NCBI GenBank assembly: GCA_002796835.1 | Contig: LUGL01000023.1 | Coordinates: 86,910-122,654 of the forward strand | DNA: 35,745 bases | Source: Elainella saxicola E1 | GTDB taxonomy: Bacteria; Cyanobacteriota; Cyanobacteriia; Elainellales; Elainellaceae | Reading direction: 5' to 3' | Part shown: positions 19,987 through 28,129 of the stretch, one piece after another | How the letters are laid out: every line of letters starts with the position of its first letter | Numbering within the stretch: position 1 is the stretch's first letter | Notes under the pieces: generated by a model | Database searches by the model: none | Told to the model about the DNA's origin: nothing | What the model saw: the letters and a program-made list of their open reading frames with translations, nothing else | Made by a program: the position numbers and the translations under genes

Positions 19987-21897
19987 ATGACCGTTTGCCT
20001 CAATCCAGCTTGTCCCAATCCCCAGAATCCCGATGACGGTCGTTACTGTCAGGCTTGCGGCACTGGGTTGATTTTGGGCGATCGCTATCAGGCCATGCGG
20101 TTGATTGGTCAGGGCGGATTTGGCCGCACATTTTATGCGATCGATCGATTGGCTGAGCCAAACAAATCAGATTGCGTTATCAAACAGCTTTTGTCACGTG
20201 GATTTCAAGATCCGGTTGAGGCCCATCAGCGATTTCAGCAAGAGGTCGATCGGTTAGCTCAGTTGGGGGAGCATCCGCAAATTCCCAAACTGTTGGCCCA
20301 TTTTGAAGAAGAAGCAACCCAATATCTGGTTCAGGAATGGATCGAGGGCCAGAATTTAGAGATTTTGCTGACGCGACAAGGCGTGTTTGACGAAGGTCAG
20401 GTGCGGCAACTCTTGGCCGATGTGTTGCCCGTGCTGCGATTTGTTCACAGCCATCAAGTAATTCACCGTGACATTAAGCCTGCCAATATCATCAAACCCT
20501 CCCCGGCCCAATCTCGCTATGTCCTAGTCGATTTTGGGGCTTCCAAAGCAATCACCGAAACGAATTTAGCCAAAACCGGAACGACGATCGGCAGTGCAGG
20601 CTATGTCGCTCCGGAACAGGCGATGGGCAAGGCTACCTTTGCCAGCGATCTTTACAGTCTGGGTGTCACCTGCGTTCATTTACTCACCGGACTGCATCCC
20701 TTCGATTTGTACTCGATCAGTGACGATCGCTGGGTTTGGCGACAGTATTTGACGCAGCCGATTAGCGTGGAATTGCGGCGTGTATTGGACACTTTGTTGC
20801 AGCGAGCCACCAGCCAACGCTACAAGGATGCCACGGAGGTTCTCCAGGCATTGAGATTAGAAGCAGCGCCCGTCTTGTCTCCCAGCATGGCTGGCAAAAT
20901 TGCCGAAAAAGTGCCGATCGCCGTCGGACAACCTGCCTCTCGCCTTCCCAGCACTCCAACCGTTCAGAAATCTGATTCGCCTACCAAACCGGGCTGGCTA
21001 TGCCGCAAAACGCTAATCGGTCATCAAGGCGAAGTCACCGCTATTGCAGTCAGTCCCAATGGCAAATTGATCGCCAGCGGCAGCAGTGATCGCAGTATTC
21101 GCCTCTGGAATTTCAAAGGGGAATTGTTGGAAACCTGGACAGGCCGATCGCTCCGGTCTGGCGTGGGTCATGCTGCACCGATTACTGCATTGGTGTTTAG
21201 TCCCAACAGCCGCGTGCTGATTAGCGCTAGCGCTGACGGATCGATCAAACAATGGGATTTGCGAAGCGGCGAGCAATTTAGCGATTTAACGGGGCAAAGT
21301 TGGAGCATTGCGGCGATCGCCCTCAGTCCTTGCGAACCGCTATTGGTCAGCGGCAGTCAGGATGGTTTAATCCAACTCTGGGATTTAGAAACCGAGGAGT
21401 TGATTGGCAATGTTGTGCAACTTCAGCAGCCCATTACCGCGCTGCAAGTGGATGTCAAAGGCGAGTCGGTCTGGAGCGGCAGTGGCAAGCAGATTTGTCA
21501 GTGGAATTTAAGGGATGATCGGTTGATTACTAGCCTCAAAGGTCATATTGAAGGAGTAAGTGCGATCGCCCTTAGTCCCGATGGGTGCACCTTAATCAGC
21601 GGCGGCATGGATAAGTTGCTGAAGCTGTGGAATTTGAATACAGGACAGCAGCAAAAACTGATCGCAGCCCACCGCGATCGCATTCAGGCCGTAACTGTTC
21701 ATCCGCAAGATCCGATTTTTGCCAGCGCCAGTGAGGACGGCACAATCAAACTCTGGGATCTTTGGACGGGCGATCGGCTGATCACGCTGCGGCATGCCTG
21801 GGCTGTGAATGCGATCGCCTTTACTCCAGATGGCCAGCAACTAGTCAGCGGTAGCTCGGACGAGACGATCAAAATTTGGCAGCGGCAGTTGGTCTAG
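19987..21897 (+). CDS. Serine/threonine protein kinase with N-terminal zinc ribbon and C-terminal WD40 propeller
   Basis: A 636-aa protein. Residues 4-24 hold four cysteines (C4, C9, C21, C24) of a zinc ribbon. The Hanks-type kinase domain spans about 34-290: glycine loop GQGGFGRTF (41-49), catalytic Lys K66, HRDIKPANI (160-168), DFG (182-184), APE (208-210). After a Pro/Ser linker seven WD40 repeats (about 342-636) make one propeller. No membrane segment, so it is a cytosolic cyanobacterial kinase, with the propeller likely binding partners. All catalytic residues are present. The last 57 bases overlap the 3' end of the opposite-strand radical SAM gene. Confidence 0.93.
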   Translation: MTVCLNPACPNPQNPDDGRYCQACGTGLILGDRYQAMRLIGQGGFGRTFYAIDRLAEPNKSDCVIKQLLSRGFQDPVEAHQRFQQEVDRLAQLGEHPQIPKLLAHFEEEATQYLVQEWIEGQNLEILLTRQGVFDEGQVRQLLADVLPVLRFVHSHQVIHRDIKPANIIKPSPAQSRYVLVDFGASKAITETNLAKTGTTIGSAGYVAPEQAMGKATFASDLYSLGVTCVHLLTGLHPFDLYSISDDRWVWRQYLTQPISVELRRVLDTLLQRATSQRYKDATEVLQALRLEAAPVLSPSMAGKIAEKVPIAVGQPASRLPSTPTVQKSDSPTKPGWLCRKTLIGHQGEVTAIAVSPNGKLIASGSSDRSIRLWNFKGELLETWTGRSLRSGVGHAAPITALVFSPNSRVLISASADGSIKQWDLRSGEQFSDLTGQSWSIAAIALSPCEPLLVSGSQDGLIQLWDLETEELIGNVVQLQQPITALQVDVKGESVWSGSGKQICQWNLRDDRLITSLKGHIEGVSAIALSPDGCTLISGGMDKLLKLWNLNTGQQQKLIAAHRDRIQAVTVHPQDPIFASASEDGTIKLWDLWTGDRLITLRHAWAVNAIAFTPDGQQLVSGSSDETIKIWQRQLV

Positions 21898-22683
21898 ATG
21901 CTTCCAGCAAACCGTGCAGGCAGGCAGATTATGGGCGATCGCAAAGGGTTCATGCACCGTATCCAGCCACTCAAAGAATGCCTGAAAGTTTTGAGCAATC
22001 TCGGCGGCATCGCTGTCTGTATCGCCTAGCTGAAAATGGGCAGATTGGTTTTCGATCGCAAATGGACAGGCGTGAAACTTGCCTTCCGTGGTCAACACCG
22101 GATAACAATGGGGACAGCGAGAATTGGCTTTGGGCCGCGTTGCTTCTCCAGTAAAGGGTTCTACACCACGTCCGGAATCCACGACATCGGGATGACCAAT
22201 GGCGATCGAATCGGGATGCTCCATTTCGTGAGTTTTTAATCGCTCAAGCGCTTTCTGCGGCATTTGCGGTGCACCGTCTCCGGTTGCGATCGAATAATTC
22301 AAAGACGCAGTGGTTTTGGACAGCGGATCGGATGCCAAAATTTGCAGAAGCCGATCGGCCTGAATGCCATTGGAGTAAATCACGATCGCACCTGCATAGC
22401 CCTGTTGTCGTAAGTAAGCGATCGCCCAGATCACATTCTCAAAATCGAGCGTCGGTTCACCACCATAGAATTTGATTGCCCCCTGTTCATTCAGCATCAC
22501 GGTCCGCAAGGCAGCATCTAAATGTTCCTGAGTATATTCGCGATACCATCCCTTGGGACTCCCAAATACGGTACAGAAGGAACAATCCTGATTGCACTGG
22601 TTGCCGGGATAGAGATGCAGTTCCATCAGGCGATCGTCAGCAATCACCCCTTTGTCACGCGGCGGTCGTTCTTTGAAAACCAT
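21841..22683 (-). CDS. Radical SAM protein with cysteine-rich C-terminal domain
   Basis: A 280-aa enzyme. The [4Fe-4S]-SAM motif is C30-N-Q-D-C34-S-F-C37, followed by FYGGEPTLDFEN (GGEP at 74-77) and IVIYSNG. Five cysteines near the end (C190, C193, C206, C256, C259) look like ligands of an auxiliary cluster, as in SPASM/twitch enzymes that act on peptides or sugars. A Cys-x3-Cys-x2-Cys start directly after a short N-terminus (ELHLYPGNQC) resembles activase-like or peptide-modifying types; the substrate is unknown. The ATG at 22683 is preferred over a TTG one codon earlier. It is the last gene of the six-gene operon, 12 bp after the binding-protein gene. Confidence 0.82.
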   Translation of the reverse strand: MVFKERPPRDKGVIADDRLMELHLYPGNQCNQDCSFCTVFGSPKGWYREYTQEHLDAALRTVMLNEQGAIKFYGGEPTLDFENVIWAIAYLRQQGYAGAIVIYSNGIQADRLLQILASDPLSKTTASLNYSIATGDGAPQMPQKALERLKTHEMEHPDSIAIGHPDVVDSGRGVEPFTGEATRPKANSRCPHCYPVLTTEGKFHACPFAIENQSAHFQLGDTDSDAAEIAQNFQAFFEWLDTVHEPFAIAHNLPACTVCWKHLDQLPLPNFDRLVRATAD

Positions 22684-22695
22684 CAAACATTCTCC

Positions 22696-23979
22696 CTATC
22701 CTGCAATCTGTTCTTCCCAAGTCTTCTCAAGCCGGGTGGTATATTCAGCATTCACCACGGGAACCGTACTGGTGATCAGTTCCTGCAACGGAATGCCATA
22801 CCCCGCTTCCACCTTAGCGAATTCTGCTTGCAGATCAGATGGAGCTTTTGAGGTATCTAATAACGGCGGATCGCCCCAAACATCCGGCTTAAACTTTTGC
22901 AGTTGCCCTTCTGGACTAGAAAGAATATTTGCCAAGATCATTGCCCCGGCTGGATTGGCCGCATTAATCGGAATCGCGGTAAAGGAAGGATCGTTTAATG
23001 AAATTCCCGGCATGGTGAACGCCTGAGTCGTTTTTGGAAATTGTCCATTCGCCAATCCTTCTGCCACATTCGAAACAAACACCGGCATTATCCAGATCTC
23101 ACCGTTGGCAAACAGTTCCTGGAGGCGACTTTGCGTTGGGGGATAGGTTTCGCCCTTGCGCCAGAGGTAAGGTTCCAATTCTTTCAGATAGTCAAACATC
23201 TGAGGCGACTTTTCATTCCACAACGTCTCGTTAAATTCGGCACCCGTATATTGCTCATAGCCTCCGGTGACACCATACAGCGCAGTCAGCAAGAAACGGC
23301 TGCCGTCAAATTGGGGTGGCGCAACATAGGCAAAGCGTCCCGGATTGGCTTTGGTCCAGATCAACAGTTCCTCGAAGGTTTTGGGCAGTTGCTGCACTTT
23401 CGCACTGTCGGCTGCCATCACGTAATAACTGCCGGTATAGGGTGCAGAATACCCTTCGATCGGTAAACCGAAATCCGAATTGACCGCTGCATTGTTGGCA
23501 TCGTAGTACTGATTGCTGGGCAGCTTGTCTCGGAACGGACCAAATAACAAATTGCCCTGTTTCATTGTGCGGAAGTTTTCGCCATTAATCCAAATTAGAT
23601 CGATTCCGCCCCCTTTGGTTTGACCTGCCTGAACCTCTCCAACTACCTTGTTAACGGCTTCTACCGTGTCGTTGAGGGGAACTCGATTTACGGTGACATC
23701 ATATTGACTTTTTAGCTGGTTGGCCACCCATTGATCGGCATAAGCGTTGGTTTTATCGCTGCCGCCCCACATGGCCCAGTTTACGGTTGTGCCTTTAGCT
23801 GCTGCCAGAATTTGGTCCCAAGAGGCCGTTTTGGGATCAAGGCTCGTGGATTCAGAAGCAGGCTTTTGTTGAACACAGTTGCTGGTGAGGATGGCGAGAC
23901 AGGCGGTTGTGGAGAGGAGGAGGAAATGGCGGCGGGAGAGAAGGGGGTAGGGAAGGGGGAGTGGGGAAGGGGGTTTCAT
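22696..23979 (-). CDS. ABC transporter substrate-binding protein, YnjB-like, Tat-type lipoprotein
   Basis: A 427-aa solute-binding protein. GGGIDLIWINGENFRTMKQG (about 120-139), LPIEGYSAPYTGSYY and KTFEELLIWTKANPGRFAY match the YnjB group (COG4134). The N-terminus has a twin-arginine signal (SRRHFLLLS, R16-R17), a hydrophobic core and a possible lipobox ending at C35 (LTSNC; Asn before Cys is unusual). This suggests export in a folded state and anchoring to the outer face of the inner membrane. Residues 3-14 (PPSPLPLPYPLL) are encoded by a CCCCACT-type repeat. The YnjBCD substrate is not established; thiamine-like or other small molecules have been suggested only by analogy. Confidence 0.85.
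   Translation of the reverse strand: MKPPSPLPLPYPLLSRRHFLLLSTTACLAILTSNCVQQKPASESTSLDPKTASWDQILAAAKGTTVNWAMWGGSDKTNAYADQWVANQLKSQYDVTVNRVPLNDTVEAVNKVVGEVQAGQTKGGGIDLIWINGENFRTMKQGNLLFGPFRDKLPSNQYYDANNAAVNSDFGLPIEGYSAPYTGSYYVMAADSAKVQQLPKTFEELLIWTKANPGRFAYVAPPQFDGSRFLLTALYGVTGGYEQYTGAEFNETLWNEKSPQMFDYLKELEPYLWRKGETYPPTQSRLQELFANGEIWIMPVFVSNVAEGLANGQFPKTTQAFTMPGISLNDPSFTAIPINAANPAGAMILANILSSPEGQLQKFKPDVWGDPPLLDTSKAPSDLQAEFAKVEAGYGIPLQELITSTVPVVNAEYTTRLEKTWEEQIAG
23943..23973 (+). repeat. G-quadruplex-capable STRR-type repeat at the 5' end of the binding-protein gene
   Basis: The plus strand has five runs of at least three G within 31 bases (43-47, 50-52, 55-59, 63-66, 69-73 of 23900). It is the template strand for the minus-strand gene, starting a few codons after its ATG. 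The units (CCCCACT, CCCTACC on the minus strand) match the repeat at 26893-26946. Confidence 0.6.
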
Positions 23980-24053
23980 ATGTTTTTTGAGTGTGAATGT
24001 TAAAAAATACAGGTTGGGAGGGGAATAGAAATGGTTGGGGTGATTTTTAGGGG

Positions 24054-25139
24054 TTAGGGGATTTGGATGGGTTGGAGGGAAGCATGGGTTTGAGGGAAGC
24101 TCCAGAGGGCGGTGGGGGGAAGATGAATGTGGACCGATCGCCCGACTGGAATATCTTGAGTAGGGGCAACCCAGGCTTGTAGGGTGAAATCAGGGTCGAT
24201 CGCCAGGGTTAAGCGGCGTTGGGTGCCTGTGAATCGGTTGGCGATTACAGTGGCATGTAGCAGATTGTTCTCTAATGGATCATTGGGCGATCGCTCCTCT
24301 GTTAACACTTGAATTTGTTCGGGGCGGATCGTGGCTTGAATAAGTCCTTGACAAGATTGTTCACTCCGCAGCGTGAAACCATTGGATAATCGCCATTGCC
24401 GTCCTGTCGCAGTTGCGGAAAAGAAATTTACGCCGCCCATAAATTGAGCCACGGTTGCATCACTGGGCTGTTGATAAATGCGCTCTGGCGTATCGACTTG
24501 TCGCAAACAGCCATTGAACATTAAGGCAATGCGTTGAGACATCACGACCGCTTCGGATTGATCATGCGTGACAATTAGCATCGTGACGCCCGTTTGAGAT
24601 TGCAATTGCAAAATTAAATCCTGCATTTCCTCTCGTAAGTTGGCATCTAGTGCTGACAGCGGTTCATCTAACAGCAGCAATTTGGGATGAATCACCAACG
24701 ATCGCGCTAATGCAACCCGTTGCGCCTGTCCACCCGAAAGTTCCGAGGGTTTACGATCGGTAAATCCTTCTAATTGCACCTGACGCAGCATGGCGATCGC
24801 TTTTTGTTCGCGCTCAGTTTGATTCACGCCACGCATCTTCAAGCCAAACGCCACATTTTCGCCGATCGTCAAGTGGGGAAACAGCAATCCTCGTTGCAGC
24901 ACCAGCGCAATATTCCGTTTTTCCGGCGGCACCCGATTAAGAATTTGATTGTCTAGGGCGATCGTGCCTCGATCGGGCTGCAATACGCCTGCGATCATTT
25001 GAAGCGTCGTCGATTTGCCGCAACCCGAAGGTCCTAAGAGCGCCAAAATCTCACCCGATCGCACTTCGAGCCACAAATCCTGAACCGCCGTGACGCCAGA
25101 GAAGTGTTTGGTGATGTTTTGTAGGGTTAAATGGGCCAT
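24054..25139 (-). CDS. ABC transporter ATP-binding protein (MalK/PotA-like with C-terminal TOBE-type region)
   Basis: A 361-aa ATPase: Walker A GPSGCGKST (36-44), Q-loop LVLQRGLLFPHLT, signature LSGGQAQR (134-141), Walker B LLLLDEPLSALD (154-165), H-loop IVTHDQ. The C-terminal 120 residues (RPEQIQVL and VIANRFTGTQRRLTLAI) resemble a TOBE regulatory domain. It pairs with the two permeases and the YnjB-like binding protein of the same operon and energises import. It begins 9 bp after the second permease gene. The 74 bp between this gene and the binding-protein gene is G-rich on the plus strand. Confidence 0.9.
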   Translation of the reverse strand: MAHLTLQNITKHFSGVTAVQDLWLEVRSGEILALLGPSGCGKSTTLQMIAGVLQPDRGTIALDNQILNRVPPEKRNIALVLQRGLLFPHLTIGENVAFGLKMRGVNQTEREQKAIAMLRQVQLEGFTDRKPSELSGGQAQRVALARSLVIHPKLLLLDEPLSALDANLREEMQDLILQLQSQTGVTMLIVTHDQSEAVVMSQRIALMFNGCLRQVDTPERIYQQPSDATVAQFMGGVNFFSATATGRQWRLSNGFTLRSEQSCQGLIQATIRPEQIQVLTEERSPNDPLENNLLHATVIANRFTGTQRRLTLAIDPDFTLQAWVAPTQDIPVGRSVHIHLPPTALWSFPQTHASLQPIQIP

Positions 25140-25148
25140 AGACCTCCC

Positions 25149-25940
25149 TCACACATTTCCCACCCCCCCCAACGCCGCTTCATTCTCTAACGCCTTGCTG
25201 GCCAACAGTAGAAACAGGAGTCCCGGTACGATCGACGTAATTGCCACTGCCGCAACCAACCCGTTATTCCCACCTTGCAGCAACGTAAACAACACCATCG
25301 GTAAGGTAAATACGCGTCCAGCCCCCACAAAGAACGTCAGCAGAAACTCGTTCCAGGAAATTAGGAAAGCGAACAAGGCACCTACGACCACACCTGGTGC
25401 AATCAGCGGTAAAGTCACCTGCGAAAACACCTGAATGGGAGAGGCTCCGAGCGATCGGGCTTGTGTTTCATAGCCGGTATCAAAATTCGCGAATACGCTC
25501 GATAGTACCAGCGTCATATAGGGAATGGTTGGCATTAAGTGCACCAGAATCACGCCCAGAATGGTGCCGTTTAGTCCCAGGCGAATCAGCATAAATTGAA
25601 TGCCCATCAGCGTTGCCAGCGGCGAAACAATAATTGGCGTAAGGAGAAACAGCTTTAATGCCTCCTTGCCGGGAAATTCTATTAGGCCGATCGCACGTCC
25701 AGCCGGTAAACCCACAAGTAATGAAAGAACAGTAGTGGTCAGAGCAATAGCCAAACTCTGAAGCAGTCCTTCGATCACTCTAGAAGTGGGCAATAAAAGC
25801 TGCGCCCAATGCTGCAACGTCCATTGTTCAGGAATGAGTTGCGGAAAAACCCACCCCTTTGCGAACGACCAAATCAGCAGGGGGAAGAACGGTAGAAATA
25901 ACACTAAAATCACGAAGACAATCAACGTATTTCTTGTCAT
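25149..25940 (-). CDS. ABC transporter permease 2
   Basis: A 263-aa BPD-type permease with about six membrane segments. The EAA loop reads ETQARSLGASPIQVFSQVTLP (about residues 157-177), the contact site for the ATPase. It follows permease 1 after 4 bp, so translational coupling is likely. In E. coli YnjC the two permease halves are fused; here they are separate genes. Overall it resembles spermidine/iron-type (PotC/FbpB-like) inner membrane subunits. Confidence 0.88.
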   Translation of the reverse strand: MTRNTLIVFVILVLFLPFFPLLIWSFAKGWVFPQLIPEQWTLQHWAQLLLPTSRVIEGLLQSLAIALTTTVLSLLVGLPAGRAIGLIEFPGKEALKLFLLTPIIVSPLATLMGIQFMLIRLGLNGTILGVILVHLMPTIPYMTLVLSSVFANFDTGYETQARSLGASPIQVFSQVTLPLIAPGVVVGALFAFLISWNEFLLTFFVGAGRVFTLPMVLFTLLQGGNNGLVAAVAITSIVPGLLFLLLASKALENEAALGGVGNV

Positions 25941-25944
25941 TTCT

Positions 25945-26856
25945 CTAGACTCCCTGAATTGATTTATGATCGCGCGAGATCAGCCAGGAGTAGAAGGCAA
26001 TAACCAAAATGGAGAATAGAGAGAGAATGATGCCCAGGGCGATCGCTTCTGGACGACGGGTCAGATCCGTATCGGTGAATGCGCGATAGACCAGGATGGG
26101 CAACGTGCGGGGACGGGTTGAACCTAATAGAAACGGCACTTCAAACGACGCGAAAATATAGCCGAATACAATCAAACTGGCAGACAAAATTCCAGACTTC
26201 ATCATCGGCAGTGTGACATTCCAAAAGCATTGCCAACGGCTAGCTCCCAGCACTCGCGCCTGCATTTCATAAGCTGGATTGATACTGCGCAAAACTGCCA
26301 GCAAAATCAAGGTAACAAAGGGAATTTCTTTCCAGAGGAAATGCAGCAAGACGCCAATGTTCGCCGTGTCATTCACCAATAACGGAAAATCTTGATCGGA
26401 CTGAATCCAACCCAAATTATAGAATCCGCGTGAAATCAAGCCGCTAGGTGACAGCAGCAGCAAAATGCCAACGATGCCAACCAGATGTGGAATCGGCAAG
26501 GTAATTTGGCAGGCAAGACTGGCCCATCGTCCTGCACTTCTCAACAGCAGCGCCAAACCAACGCTCAAAATCGTCGATAATCCAGTTGCAACGATCGCAA
26601 TATAAAGGCTAAGGCCAAGCGATCGCAAAAATTCTGGATTCGTGAATGCCGCCCAATATGCATCCAAGGAAATTCGACCTGCACCCAAAATGCCGATCGC
26701 CCCAATACTTTGCAAAAACGCCAGCACCAACCCACCGCCAAACAGCAACCCGATGATTCCCACTGCTGGTAGCAGCAACAGATAAGCCCGCCACTGCCTA
26801 AAAAACTGCGGTCGAGTTGCCCTTATTGGTTGCGGTCGAACTACCCCTGTCCCCAT
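25945..26856 (-). CDS. ABC transporter permease 1
   Basis: A permease of about 303 aa with roughly six membrane segments and the EAA loop EMQARVLGASRWQCFWNVTLP (about 200-220). The frame opens at a TTG (26865), but the ATG at 26856 is a better start; both lie in a CCCCATT-type repeat, so the first residues (MGTGVVRPQ) are repeat-derived and probably unimportant. It forms the heterodimeric channel with permease 2. It starts about 50 bp after the kinase gene. Confidence 0.87.
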   Translation of the reverse strand: MGTGVVRPQPIRATRPQFFRQWRAYLLLLPAVGIIGLLFGGGLVLAFLQSIGAIGILGAGRISLDAYWAAFTNPEFLRSLGLSLYIAIVATGLSTILSVGLALLLRSAGRWASLACQITLPIPHLVGIVGILLLLSPSGLISRGFYNLGWIQSDQDFPLLVNDTANIGVLLHFLWKEIPFVTLILLAVLRSINPAYEMQARVLGASRWQCFWNVTLPMMKSGILSASLIVFGYIFASFEVPFLLGSTRPRTLPILVYRAFTDTDLTRRPEAIALGIILSLFSILVIAFYSWLISRDHKSIQGV

Positions 26857-26892
26857 TCCCCTCAAACCTCAAACCCTAAATCATCAAATCGC

Positions 26893-26946
26893 CTCACTCC
26901 CCACTCCCCTATTCCCTACTCCCCCATTCCCTCATTCCCCTCCTCC
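26893..26946. repeat. STRR-type repeat array (CCCCACT / CCCCTAT / CCCTACT)
   Basis: Heptamer-like units (CACTCCC, CACTCCCC, TATTCCC, TACTCCCC, CATTCCC, TCATTCCCC) between the kinase and permease-1 genes. The array runs into the end of the kinase ORF, whose last residues (EEGNEGMGE) it encodes. A related C-rich stretch covers the permease-1 start (26845-26866). Confidence 0.7.
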
Positions 26947-27986
26947 AACCACCCCATCACCTCTTCCCATAACTCCGAAAACTGCTCCTGACTTTGCTGC
27001 AATCTCGCCATCCGTTCAACTGCACTGGCACTCTCTTTCGCCTCGGCATACCAGCGATTCGCCGTGATCCAATATCCTGCAGTCCAACAGAGCGATCGCA
27101 CAGCCGGATATACCCCAAATGCCGCGAAATGATGTCGAATTCGAGTGGCTAAATCTGCATCTTCCAGCGCATCGTAATAGCGCTCTAAAAAGAAAGCCCG
27201 ATCTTCAGCAGGCAAGCAATAGTTGTGGTGGCGGCGAATCGTCACCGGGGATAGAAAATGGCCTAAATCACCGGCAGGCGAACCAATTTCCGCCCATTCC
27301 CAGTCGATCAGATAAGCTTGCCGATCGTTAATCACCCAATTTTCATAGGTGTGATCGCTATGGACCAGACAGCGATGTGGATAGGCGGCTAATAAGGATT
27401 CCATCGATAGGCGCGATCGGGCTTTCTCCAACAAAGCATGCAGCATTTCCACAATGTCGGGTTCTGCTTCTGGTGCATCTAGATAGGGTTGCGCATAGTC
27501 CTTGGCTTCCTGATAGAACAGCGTTAGAGGATGCTCAATCACGGGGACCGTTGGCCGCAGTCGATCGACCTCATAGCCTGCAATAGTTGGGAGTCGGTGT
27601 AGCTGGGCCAGGGTGTGAGCACATTTCTGTAAATGATCGCGGCTATAATCCAGCGGCATCCCTTCTAAATAATTGGTAATTAAGAAGGTGTAGGGAAAGT
27701 CTGCGGTTGGTTCTAAGCTCACCGCCTGGAGCTGGTGCCCGATATCAGTTTTCTGCAAATAATTCAGAATCACCTGCTCAAACTGGGTGACCTGGCGAAG
27801 ATCTCCGGCAAATCGCTGGTTGGGTGTGTTTACTGCCACTCGGACCAGAGCAGTCAGATTTAATCTGAAGATGACGTTGGCTTCCCCATGCGCCAAAAGA
27901 TCTATCTGAAGGGGGTTGTACGATTGGCTAAGGTGCGTCTGTAGCTGCTGTTTCAGAACCTTCAAATCAAGAGGGTTGGTAGACAT
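26916..27986 (-). CDS. APH-fold small-molecule kinase (aminoglycoside phosphotransferase family)
   Basis: A 356-aa protein of the aminoglycoside/choline kinase fold. Glycine/nucleotide region GEANVIFRL (34-42), hinge ITNYLEG (103-109), catalytic loop HSDHTYENWVIN (H209-S-D211, N216) and metal-binding YLIDWEWAEIGSPAGDLGH (D228). The usual HGD is HSD here; D211, N216 and D228 are kept, so activity is plausible. The family phosphorylates hydroxyls of drugs, choline, thiamine, sugars and others. As first gene of an operon with an importer, trapping of the imported compound by phosphorylation is more likely than drug resistance (inference). The C-terminal dozen residues are encoded by an STRR repeat. 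Confidence 0.83.
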   Translation of the reverse strand: MSTNPLDLKVLKQQLQTHLSQSYNPLQIDLLAHGEANVIFRLNLTALVRVAVNTPNQRFAGDLRQVTQFEQVILNYLQKTDIGHQLQAVSLEPTADFPYTFLITNYLEGMPLDYSRDHLQKCAHTLAQLHRLPTIAGYEVDRLRPTVPVIEHPLTLFYQEAKDYAQPYLDAPEAEPDIVEMLHALLEKARSRLSMESLLAAYPHRCLVHSDHTYENWVINDRQAYLIDWEWAEIGSPAGDLGHFLSPVTIRRHHNYCLPAEDRAFFLERYYDALEDADLATRIRHHFAAFGVYPAVRSLCWTAGYWITANRWYAEAKESASAVERMARLQQSQEQFSELWEEVMGWLEEGNEGMGE

Positions 27987-28129
27987 CAGGCAGATCGCTT
28001 CAGCAACAGGTTTTATAATAAACGCTTTTCTTTTGACTTTTTTCTTTCCCTAACGTTTCATGTGCAATCTTGCGGTGACTTCTGAAAGTGAGCTACCTTC
28101 AATGAGGCATCCACTGGTGGAGTAGCGCC

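What the first reader, a model, noticed from the sequence alone, without database searches (positions are those of the whole stretch)
21841..27986. Six-gene import-and-modify operon: APH kinase, split YnjC-type permeases, ATPase, Tat lipoprotein binding protein, radical SAM enzyme
Six genes on one strand are separated by only 4-74 bp. The transporter part resembles E. coli YnjBCD, whose substrate is not established, but here an APH-fold kinase is the first gene and a radical SAM enzyme with five extra C-terminal cysteines is the last. This combination suggests uptake, phosphorylation and radical chemistry on one small molecule, or on a peptide or sugar derivative. The Tat-type signal on the binding protein suggests that it folds in the cytoplasm before export. 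The grouping is seen directly; the pathway is inference.
Basis: partly seen in the sequence, partly recalled or inferred. Interest (0 to 1): 0.62.

Follow-up and report, generated by a model that had tools for sequence, protein, structure and literature searches.

The report
Cyanobacterial import, kinase, radical-SAM operon
Six neighbouring genes of a cyanobacterium form a conserved unit that probably imports one unknown small molecule and modifies it with a kinase and a radical enzyme; relatives of its switch protein control phosphate and phosphonate importers, which hints that the cargo is a phosphorus compound or an arsenic look-alike.

Summary
The six genes at 21841-27986 (- strand) are real, 4-74 bp apart, and of the predicted kinds. 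In 388 cyanobacterial genomes the radical SAM gene (35 genomes) and the kinase gene (34) co-occur in 33 (Fisher p about 3e-44). All six lie on one contig in 18 of the 35. In four genomes the kinase lies elsewhere; in one an unrelated ABC transporter sits between the same radical SAM and kinase genes. One pathway is well supported.

The radical SAM enzyme is an unnamed Twitch-type family: four of the 'five extra cysteines' fit the auxiliary-cluster motif, the fifth is invariant (33 of 33) and unexplained.

New: in 9 loci an ArsR-type repressor with three invariant cysteines lies upstream, with an ATGAA-N6-TTCAT operator exact in 7. In 20 genomes that I read, which have this repressor but no radical SAM gene, it heads a phosphate-type (19) or phosphonate-type (1) importer operon. 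This points to a phosphorus compound or an arsenic analogue as cargo. The substrate is not shown; the window's genome has no close relative of this repressor.

The parts
26916..27986 (-). KIN: APH-fold small-molecule kinase, first gene
   Evidence: PF01636 above cut-off; His209, Asp211, Asn216 and Asp228 invariant in 19 aligned rows including a 26% relative
25945..26865 (-). PERM1: ABC permease (first half of a YnjC-like permease)
   Evidence: PF00528; syntenic homologues
25149..25940 (-). PERM2: ABC permease (second half)
   Evidence: PF00528; syntenic homologues
24054..25139 (-). ATP: ABC ATPase with TOBE domain
   Evidence: PF00005 and PF08402 above cut-off
22696..23979 (-). SBP: Tat-type lipoprotein solute-binding protein of the PRK11622 (YnjB) family
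   Evidence: 451.5 bits, cut-off 203; RR and Cys35 conserved; SBP fold
21841..22683 (-). RSAM: Twitch-type radical SAM enzyme, last gene (start ATG 22683 preferred to TTG 22686)
   Evidence: PF04055; eight invariant Cys in 33 of 33; best structural matches EpeE, anSME, BtrN
27987..28129 (-). intergenic region upstream of the operon; holds no exact copy of the ATGAA-N6-TTCAT operator found in relatives

Best explanation
The six genes are one uptake-and-processing unit. A Tat-exported lipoprotein captures a small solute, the YnjBCD-type ABC transporter imports it, the APH-fold kinase phosphorylates a hydroxyl group on it or on a product, and the Twitch radical SAM enzyme carries out 5'-deoxyadenosyl-radical chemistry at a C-H bond, by analogy with BtrN (dehydrogenation) or EpeE (epimerisation). 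The cargo is most likely a phosphorus-containing small alcohol (phosphate ester or phosphonate), and the ancestral operon was controlled by an ArsR-type thiol/metalloid repressor that in other cyanobacteria controls phosphate or phosphonate importers. Shown: gene identities, conservation, co-occurrence, transporter swap, cysteine motif, and a regulator gene with an operator-like repeat in relatives. Inferred: order of steps, reaction type, nature of the cargo, that the repressor acts on this operon, and its signal.
For: Co-occurrence: RSAM in 35 and KIN in 34 of 388 genomes, both in 33; SBP in 37, with RSAM in 31. Transporter swap in G057: ArsR-type gene, cyclase, RSAM, PotD-like ABC transporter (4 genes), KIN. 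RSAM with a YnjB-type transporter in Pyrinomonadaceae (L188), RSAM with a 32% KIN relative in bacterium JZ-2 (L168). Twitch motif C190-X10-G201-X4-C206 ... C256-X2-C259 and EpeE/anSME/BtrN as best structural matches. Repressor next to the operon in 9 loci, exact operator in 7 of 9. The same repressor family heads Pst-type (19 of 20) or Phn-type (1 of 20) operons in genomes without RSAM. Published precedents, seen as passages: in Agrobacterium 5A the pst/pho/phn1 genes near ars1 are raised by As(III), and ArsR1 represses pstS1 and phoB1 (PMC7965956); pst and phn operons are frequent in arsenic islands (PMC3834237); in the cyanobacterium Nodularia an arsR gene lies beside a phosphate-binding SphX gene and acr3/arsH (PMC3610870; kinship with this repressor untested). 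Elsewhere YnjB-type transporters sit beside a CDP-alcohol phosphatidyltransferase (5 of 7 plasmid loci viewed; the one scored is below cut-off but nearest to inositol-phosphate types), which fits an alcohol or alcohol-phosphate cargo.
Against: The repressor is adjacent in only 9 of the 35 RSAM genomes (in a tenth, G169, a relative read with a stop lies elsewhere), and G000 holds no close relative. The operator also occurs at three other places in 747 kb of operon-bearing loci, two of them one repeated element in L081. acr3 lies beside the repressor in none of the 32 repressor genomes searched; 11 of the 33 genomes given (G000 included) had no acr3 match. No Pho box stands out: in 26 of 28 upstream regions 16% or more of shuffles did as well; in two (L090, L062) 1% or fewer did. 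RSAM occurs with neither kinase nor transporter found in 18 of 20 non-cyanobacterial genomes searched, of 27 such loci (completeness not told), so its chemistry is not tied to import. SBP fold matches are tied over many ligand types. No substrate pocket was analysed.
Confidence: 0.42

Rival explanations
1. Salvage of a phosphorus-free small alcohol (polyol, aminocyclitol, modified nucleoside or cofactor precursor): import, phosphorylation to trap it, radical dehydrogenation or epimerisation; the ArsR link is incidental.
For: BtrN (Z 11.1) and, lower and tied with several others, SpeY (Z 9.9) are among the structural matches of RSAM; that both act on aminocyclitols is recalled. The APH fold is that of small-alcohol kinases (and recalled). 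The repressor is adjacent in only 9 loci.
Against: The same repressor family otherwise heads phosphate- or phosphonate-type importers in 20 of 20 loci read.
Confidence: 0.3
2. Organoarsenical uptake and processing: the operon imports an arsenic compound, senses trivalent arsenic through the three-cysteine ArsR, and the radical SAM enzyme acts on it.
For: Three invariant cysteines in 29 of 29 repressors; a DUF547-RSAM relative in L185 lies beside a fused TIGR04282/TIGR04283 'arsenosugar' glycosyltransferase (both above cut-off); an ars-type gene set (ArsI above cut-off) sits where the transporter genes should be in Microcoleus G053.
Against: RSAM is not ArsS (18.5 bits against a cut-off of 300); ArsS is common in cyanobacteria (108 of 145 over cut-off), so co-occurrence is uninformative; no acr3 beside the repressor; only 1 of 20 ArsS loci has a DUF547 match.
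Confidence: 0.14
3. Radical SAM maturation of a ribosomal peptide, with the transporter moving the peptide.
For: Many SPASM/Twitch enzymes, EpeE included, act on peptides.
Against: No precursor ORF fits between genes 4-74 bp apart; Pfam and NCBIfam report no peptide-recognition domain; importer-type transporter with a binding protein.
Confidence: 0.04
4. Chance neighbours without common function.
For: Kinase or transporter separate in some genomes.
Against: Co-occurrence p about 3e-44; transporter swap keeps RSAM and KIN together.
Confidence: 0.02

Closest known systems
E. coli YnjBCD ABC transporter (PRK11622 family)
   Same: Binding protein clearly in the family
   Different: Permease split in two, ATPase with TOBE domain, no phosphatidyltransferase or rhodanese neighbour; kinase and radical SAM genes instead (E. 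coli layout recalled)
Twitch/SPASM radical SAM enzymes (EpeE, anSME, BtrN)
   Same: Auxiliary-cluster motif CX9-15GX4C-gap-CX2C and overall fold
   Different: No named NCBIfam family reached; extra invariant Cys193; operon with kinase and transporter
As(III)-raised pst1/phn1 importers of Agrobacterium tumefaciens 5A, with ArsR1 repressing pstS1
   Same: ArsR-type repressor with phosphate and phosphonate importers (PMC7965956, passages)
   Different: In cyanobacteria a third kind of target, the KIN-YnjBCD-RSAM operon, is added; signal and binding untested
Queuosine salvage with a queuine lyase
   Same: Import-and-radical logic (partly recalled)
   Different: The passage read (PMC7694415) names no kinase; no homology tested

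Membership tests
PRK11622 / YnjB solute-binding family | NCBIfam score above cut-off 203 | tested here: met
   451.5 bits
YnjBCD transporter as in E. coli | Single double-length permease YnjC (recalled) | tested here: not met
   Two permease genes, 306 and 263 aa
YnjBCD locus with a CDP-alcohol phosphatidyltransferase | CDP-alcohol phosphatidyltransferase neighbour | tested here: not met
   Absent from the operon; present in 5 of 7 plasmid loci viewed
Twitch radical SAM | First four SPASM cysteines CX9-15GX4C-gap-CX2C | tested here: met
   C190, G201, C206, C256, C259 invariant, 33 of 33; motif from PMC6231123 (passages)
Full SPASM radical SAM | Seven-cysteine motif | tested here: not met
   Only five C-terminal cysteines conserved
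EpeE-type radical epimerase | A cysteine completing the epimerisation (Cys223 in EpeE) | not testable with these tools
   C193 is invariant, but correspondence to EpeE Cys223 was not established
ArsS (TIGR04167) | Score above cut-off 300 | tested here: not met
   18.5 bits
APH phosphotransferase family | Pfam PF01636 above cut-off | tested here: met
   43 bits, cut-off 23.2
Thiamine kinase ThiK (TIGR02721) | Score above cut-off 299.45 | tested here: not met
   27.9 bits
ArsR/SmtB metalloregulator (repressor in relatives) | NCBIfam NF033788 above cut-off 55 | tested here: met
   71.0 bits for L070, 83.2 for L263, the two scored
As(III)-responsive ArsR | A characterised three-cysteine As(III) site | tested here: inconclusive
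   Three invariant Cys (one N-terminal, CC C-terminal), 29 of 29, but the layout matches none of the types described in PMC11868830 (parts 1 and 2 of 3 read; judged by eye)

The most novel reading that the evidence does not exclude
A third arm of an ArsR-controlled phosphorus/arsenic response in cyanobacteria: beside phosphate (Pst) and phosphonate (Phn) import, the same repressor family controls import of a third phosphorus or arsenic compound that is then phosphorylated and opened up by a new Twitch radical SAM family with a possible cysteine hydrogen donor.
Probability: 0.3. Interest if true: 0.78.

Novelty: new variant of a known kind. Interest (0 to 1): 0.55.

Why it matters
YnjBCD is an orphan transporter of E. 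coli; in the passages I saw it is listed as a polyamine transporter homologue or merely as 'conserved proteins'. This operon ties its cyanobacterial relatives to a kinase, an unnamed radical SAM family and, through a shared repressor family, to phosphate and phosphonate uptake. That gives a short list of candidate cargos and makes the substrate question directly testable. It would also add a possible radical enzyme to phosphorus or arsenic metabolism.

Tried and rejected
Rejected: (1) RSAM as ArsS, MoaA, viperin or BlsE: all far below cut-off. (2) Kinase as ThiK, LxmK, CotS or GntI: far below cut-off. (3) Queuosine-type salvage: only a logical analogy. (4) Peptide maturation: no room for a precursor. 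(5) Pho-box control: no signal in 26 of 28 regions. (6) An ars cluster at the repressor: acr3 not beside it; the nearest match on the same contig is a below-cut-off one 15 kb away in G270. (7) DUF547 as a regular ArsS neighbour: 1 of 20; glycosyltransferases of the TIGR04282/04283 kind matched in 4 of 20. (8) RSAM on plasmids: no match; kinase: 2 weak hits, both annotated LxmK. (9) SBP fold as a guide to ligand: the 50 rows shown lie at Z 24.5-25.8; the model is only fair (mean pLDDT 75.5). (10) SpeY as a special relative of RSAM: at Z 9.9 it is tied with viperin-like, SuiB, ChlB and TigE rows.

Weak points: presence was counted at E below 1e-20, which drops 6 of 41 RSAM, 5 of 39 KIN and 1 of 38 SBP genomes listed. 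The Fisher test is not corrected for kinship. Nine RSAM genomes are cut by contig ends (G145, G099, G223, G293, G373, G346, G267, G254, G291). Some copies are broken or in two pieces: kinase and binding protein in G128, RSAM in G240, binding protein in G247, RSAM cut by the contig end in G273; in G200 the binding-protein gene is inverted. Non-cyanobacterial RSAM relatives came from one scan that returned 58 loci; I checked 20 of 27 such loci's genomes for partners. Of 22 repressor genomes without RSAM, 20 were read (G010 and G349 not); HMM names were sought for L263 (all four genes), L276 (three) and L259 (two); the other 17 rest on clustering and on the PstS-like sequence by eye. DUF547 was scored by Pfam in 2 relatives; seven more were judged by eye. 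Of 197 plasmid records with a YnjB-type match I viewed 7. Literature: the search library lacks most subscription papers; searches found nothing on this gene set (one search listed one Marinobacter paper that I did not open). Papers: PMC11868830, parts 1 and 2 of 3; PMC7694415, PMC9397018, PMC2731931, PMC6231123, PMC8326336, PMC3834237, PMC3610870 and PMC7965956, passages only. Recalled, from no call: E. coli ynj layout and the double-length YnjC, that PRK11622 is the YnjB family, the Pho-box consensus, substrates of BtrN and SpeY.
Full report
WHAT IS THERE. The six genes of the finding are present at the stated place on the minus strand, with gaps of 50, 4, 9, 74 and 12 bp (the last gap counts from the ATG at 22683, which homologues support). 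Family scans give an APH-fold kinase, two ABC permeases, an ABC ATPase with a TOBE domain, a binding protein far above the cut-off of PRK11622 (recalled as the YnjB family), and a radical SAM protein that reaches Pfam's Radical_SAM cut-off but no named NCBIfam family. The window lies in an 8.7 Mb, 284-contig assembly; the nearest named relatives of the radical SAM gene are cyanobacteria such as strain FACHB-471 and Oculatella (84-87%). The genome gave one match for each of the three genes searched: RSAM, binding protein, kinase.

IT IS ONE UNIT. In the same 388 cyanobacterial genomes, counting hits below 1e-20, RSAM is in 35, the kinase in 34 and the binding protein in 37. RSAM and kinase coincide in 33, RSAM and binding protein in 31 (Fisher p 2.6e-44 and 1.8e-35, not corrected for kinship). 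The 35 RSAM genomes divide as follows: 18 with all six genes on one contig (17 relatives plus the window; a few copies broken or cut, see Tried and rejected), 9 cut by contig ends, 4 with the kinase apart (G138, G159, G111, and G261, which gave no binding protein), 2 with the operon split (G113, G028), 1 with the transporter swapped (G057), 1 with it broken (G053). Pairwise distances of the gene products correlate, also for pairs that involve five separated or split genomes (kinase/RSAM rho 0.57 overall, 0.69 for those; 23 genomes); shared descent of the hosts alone could give this. Results the other way: the binding protein occurs without RSAM in 6 genomes of one small group.

THE TRANSPORTER CAN BE SWAPPED. 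In G057 (L070) the order is ArsR-type gene (divergent), a PF04199 cyclase, RSAM (65% identical), a binding protein of another ABC family, ATPase, two permeases, kinase (62%). RSAM and kinase thus bracket an unrelated importer, which argues for a shared cargo class. Outside cyanobacteria RSAM is found with a YnjB-type transporter and no kinase (Pyrinomonadaceae L188), or with a 32% kinase relative and no transporter (bacterium JZ-2, L168). In 18 of 20 non-cyanobacterial genomes tested neither partner was found. Among such relatives, the nine displayed carry a DUF547-like part in front of RSAM (two scored by Pfam, seven judged by eye).

THE RADICAL SAM ENZYME. Eight cysteines are invariant in 33 of 33 sequences: C30-X3-C34-X2-C37, then C190, C193, C206, C256, C259. 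C190-X10-G201-X4-C206 ... C256-X2-C259 is the first half of the SPASM motif as printed in PMC6231123 (passages), i.e. a Twitch domain with one auxiliary cluster. In a non-significant alignment to anSME (5.2 bits) C190 and C206 fall on the cluster ligands Cys261 and Cys276 (ligands), leaving C193 spare. The model (mean pLDDT 87.6) is nearest to EpeE (Z 12.7, rmsd 3.9, 236 aligned), anSME (Z 11.4, 4.4, 230) and BtrN (Z 11.1, 4.1, 216); SpeY (Z 9.9, 4.4, 211) is tied with viperin-like, SuiB and other rows. EpeE is proposed to use a cysteine, Cys223, to finish epimerisation (passages of PMC8326336). Whether C193 plays that part is untested.

THE REGULATOR CLUE. In nine operon loci an ArsR/SmtB-type gene lies just upstream of the kinase gene, or of the cyclase gene in G057. 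All 29 aligned repressors carry one N-terminal Cys and a C-terminal Cys-Cys. An inverted repeat ATGAA-N6-TTCAT is exact in 7 of these 9 loci. In the 747 kb of operon-bearing loci scanned there are three further copies, and in 369 kb of other cyanobacterial DNA and in the window none. G057 has a longer imperfect repeat upstream of the cyclase gene. Within 250 bp upstream of the 29 repressors the best match is 9 or 10 of 10 positions in 26, against 0-4% of base shuffles reaching 9. Searching 388 genomes with this repressor gave 32 genomes: 10 with RSAM (in one, G169, not beside the operon) and 22 without. I read 20 of those 22. In 19 the repressor heads a PstS-PstC-PstA-PstB type operon, complete or cut by a contig end; in one (L259) it heads PhnD and PhnE plus an ATPase (HMM names for L263, L276 and L259). 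In Agrobacterium 5A the pst/pho/phn1 genes near ars1 are raised by As(III) and ArsR1 represses pstS1 and phoB1 (passages of PMC7965956), and pst and phn operons are common in arsenic islands (passages of PMC3834237). In Nodularia an arsR gene lies beside a phosphate-binding SphX gene in an arsenic cluster (passages of PMC3610870), so an ArsR-phosphate link in cyanobacteria is not wholly new; whether that ArsR belongs to this family was not tested. By these analogies the KIN-YnjBCD-RSAM operon looks like a third member of a phosphorus/arsenic regulon. Against a firm reading: the repressor is beside only 9 of 35 RSAM genomes, the window's genome has no close relative of it, acr3 is not beside it in any of the 32 repressor genomes, and its signal is unknown.

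WHAT YnjB-TYPE TRANSPORTERS KEEP COMPANY WITH ELSEWHERE. In 5 of 7 annotated plasmid loci viewed (of 197 records with a match) a CDP-alcohol phosphatidyltransferase is next to the transporter (Klebsiella, Roseivivax, Aliiroseovarius, Qingshengfaniella, Cetobacterium; not Deinococcus or Peptoclostridium). The Cetobacterium one, the only one scored, is nearest to inositol-phosphate types but below cut-off. This fits an alcohol or alcohol phosphate as cargo and agrees loosely with the regulator clue.

MECHANISM. Most likely: capture and import; phosphorylation by the APH-fold kinase; radical hydrogen abstraction by the Twitch enzyme with the auxiliary cluster taking or giving an electron. The order of kinase and RSAM, the reaction and the cargo are inferred. 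A phosphorus-containing alcohol is my first choice (0.42), a phosphorus-free alcohol the main rival (0.30), an organoarsenical a bolder one (0.14).

VERDICT. It is a new variant of known parts.

Noticed in passing
L073:6033-10516 (Microcoleus sp. FACHB-1515, G053): Divergent RSAM and kinase genes with permease remnants; an ars-type set (ArsR-like, ArsI above cut-off, aquaporin-like, ArsC-like; all but ArsI by eye) sits where ATPase and binding protein should be, and a 32-residue tail of the binding protein remains behind it.
   Followed up: partly
L185:198-3146: A DUF547-radical SAM fusion lies next to a fused TIGR04282/TIGR04283 'arsenosugar' glycosyltransferase gene, divergently transcribed and about 50 bp away.
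   Followed up: partly
L186, L187, L194, L199: DUF547-radical SAM fusions follow genes that look like phospholipid headgroup synthesis genes (psd/pssA; by eye).
   Followed up: no
L259-L278: ArsR-type repressor as first gene of Pst-type operons in 19 loci and of a Phn-type operon in one: a possible cyanobacterial regulon; only the search touched on it, and it returned a related case in Nodularia (PMC3610870).
   Followed up: partly
window:21841-21897: The RSAM gene and the convergent WD40/protein-kinase gene 19987-21897 overlap tail to tail by 57 bp.
   Followed up: no
window:28130-31339: A 1069-aa protein with an NTPase-like part and a long pentapeptide-repeat tail (by eye), divergent from the operon; proteins that cluster with it occur in 5 other fetched loci.
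   Followed up: no
L081:5093 and 5420 (G066): Two identical copies of an operator-like palindrome between kinase and permease genes.
   Followed up: no
L076-L080: YnjB-type binding protein without kinase or RSAM in one small cyanobacterial group (with a matching ATPase in four of the five loci), near an osmoprotectant-type ABC permease (by eye).
   Followed up: no
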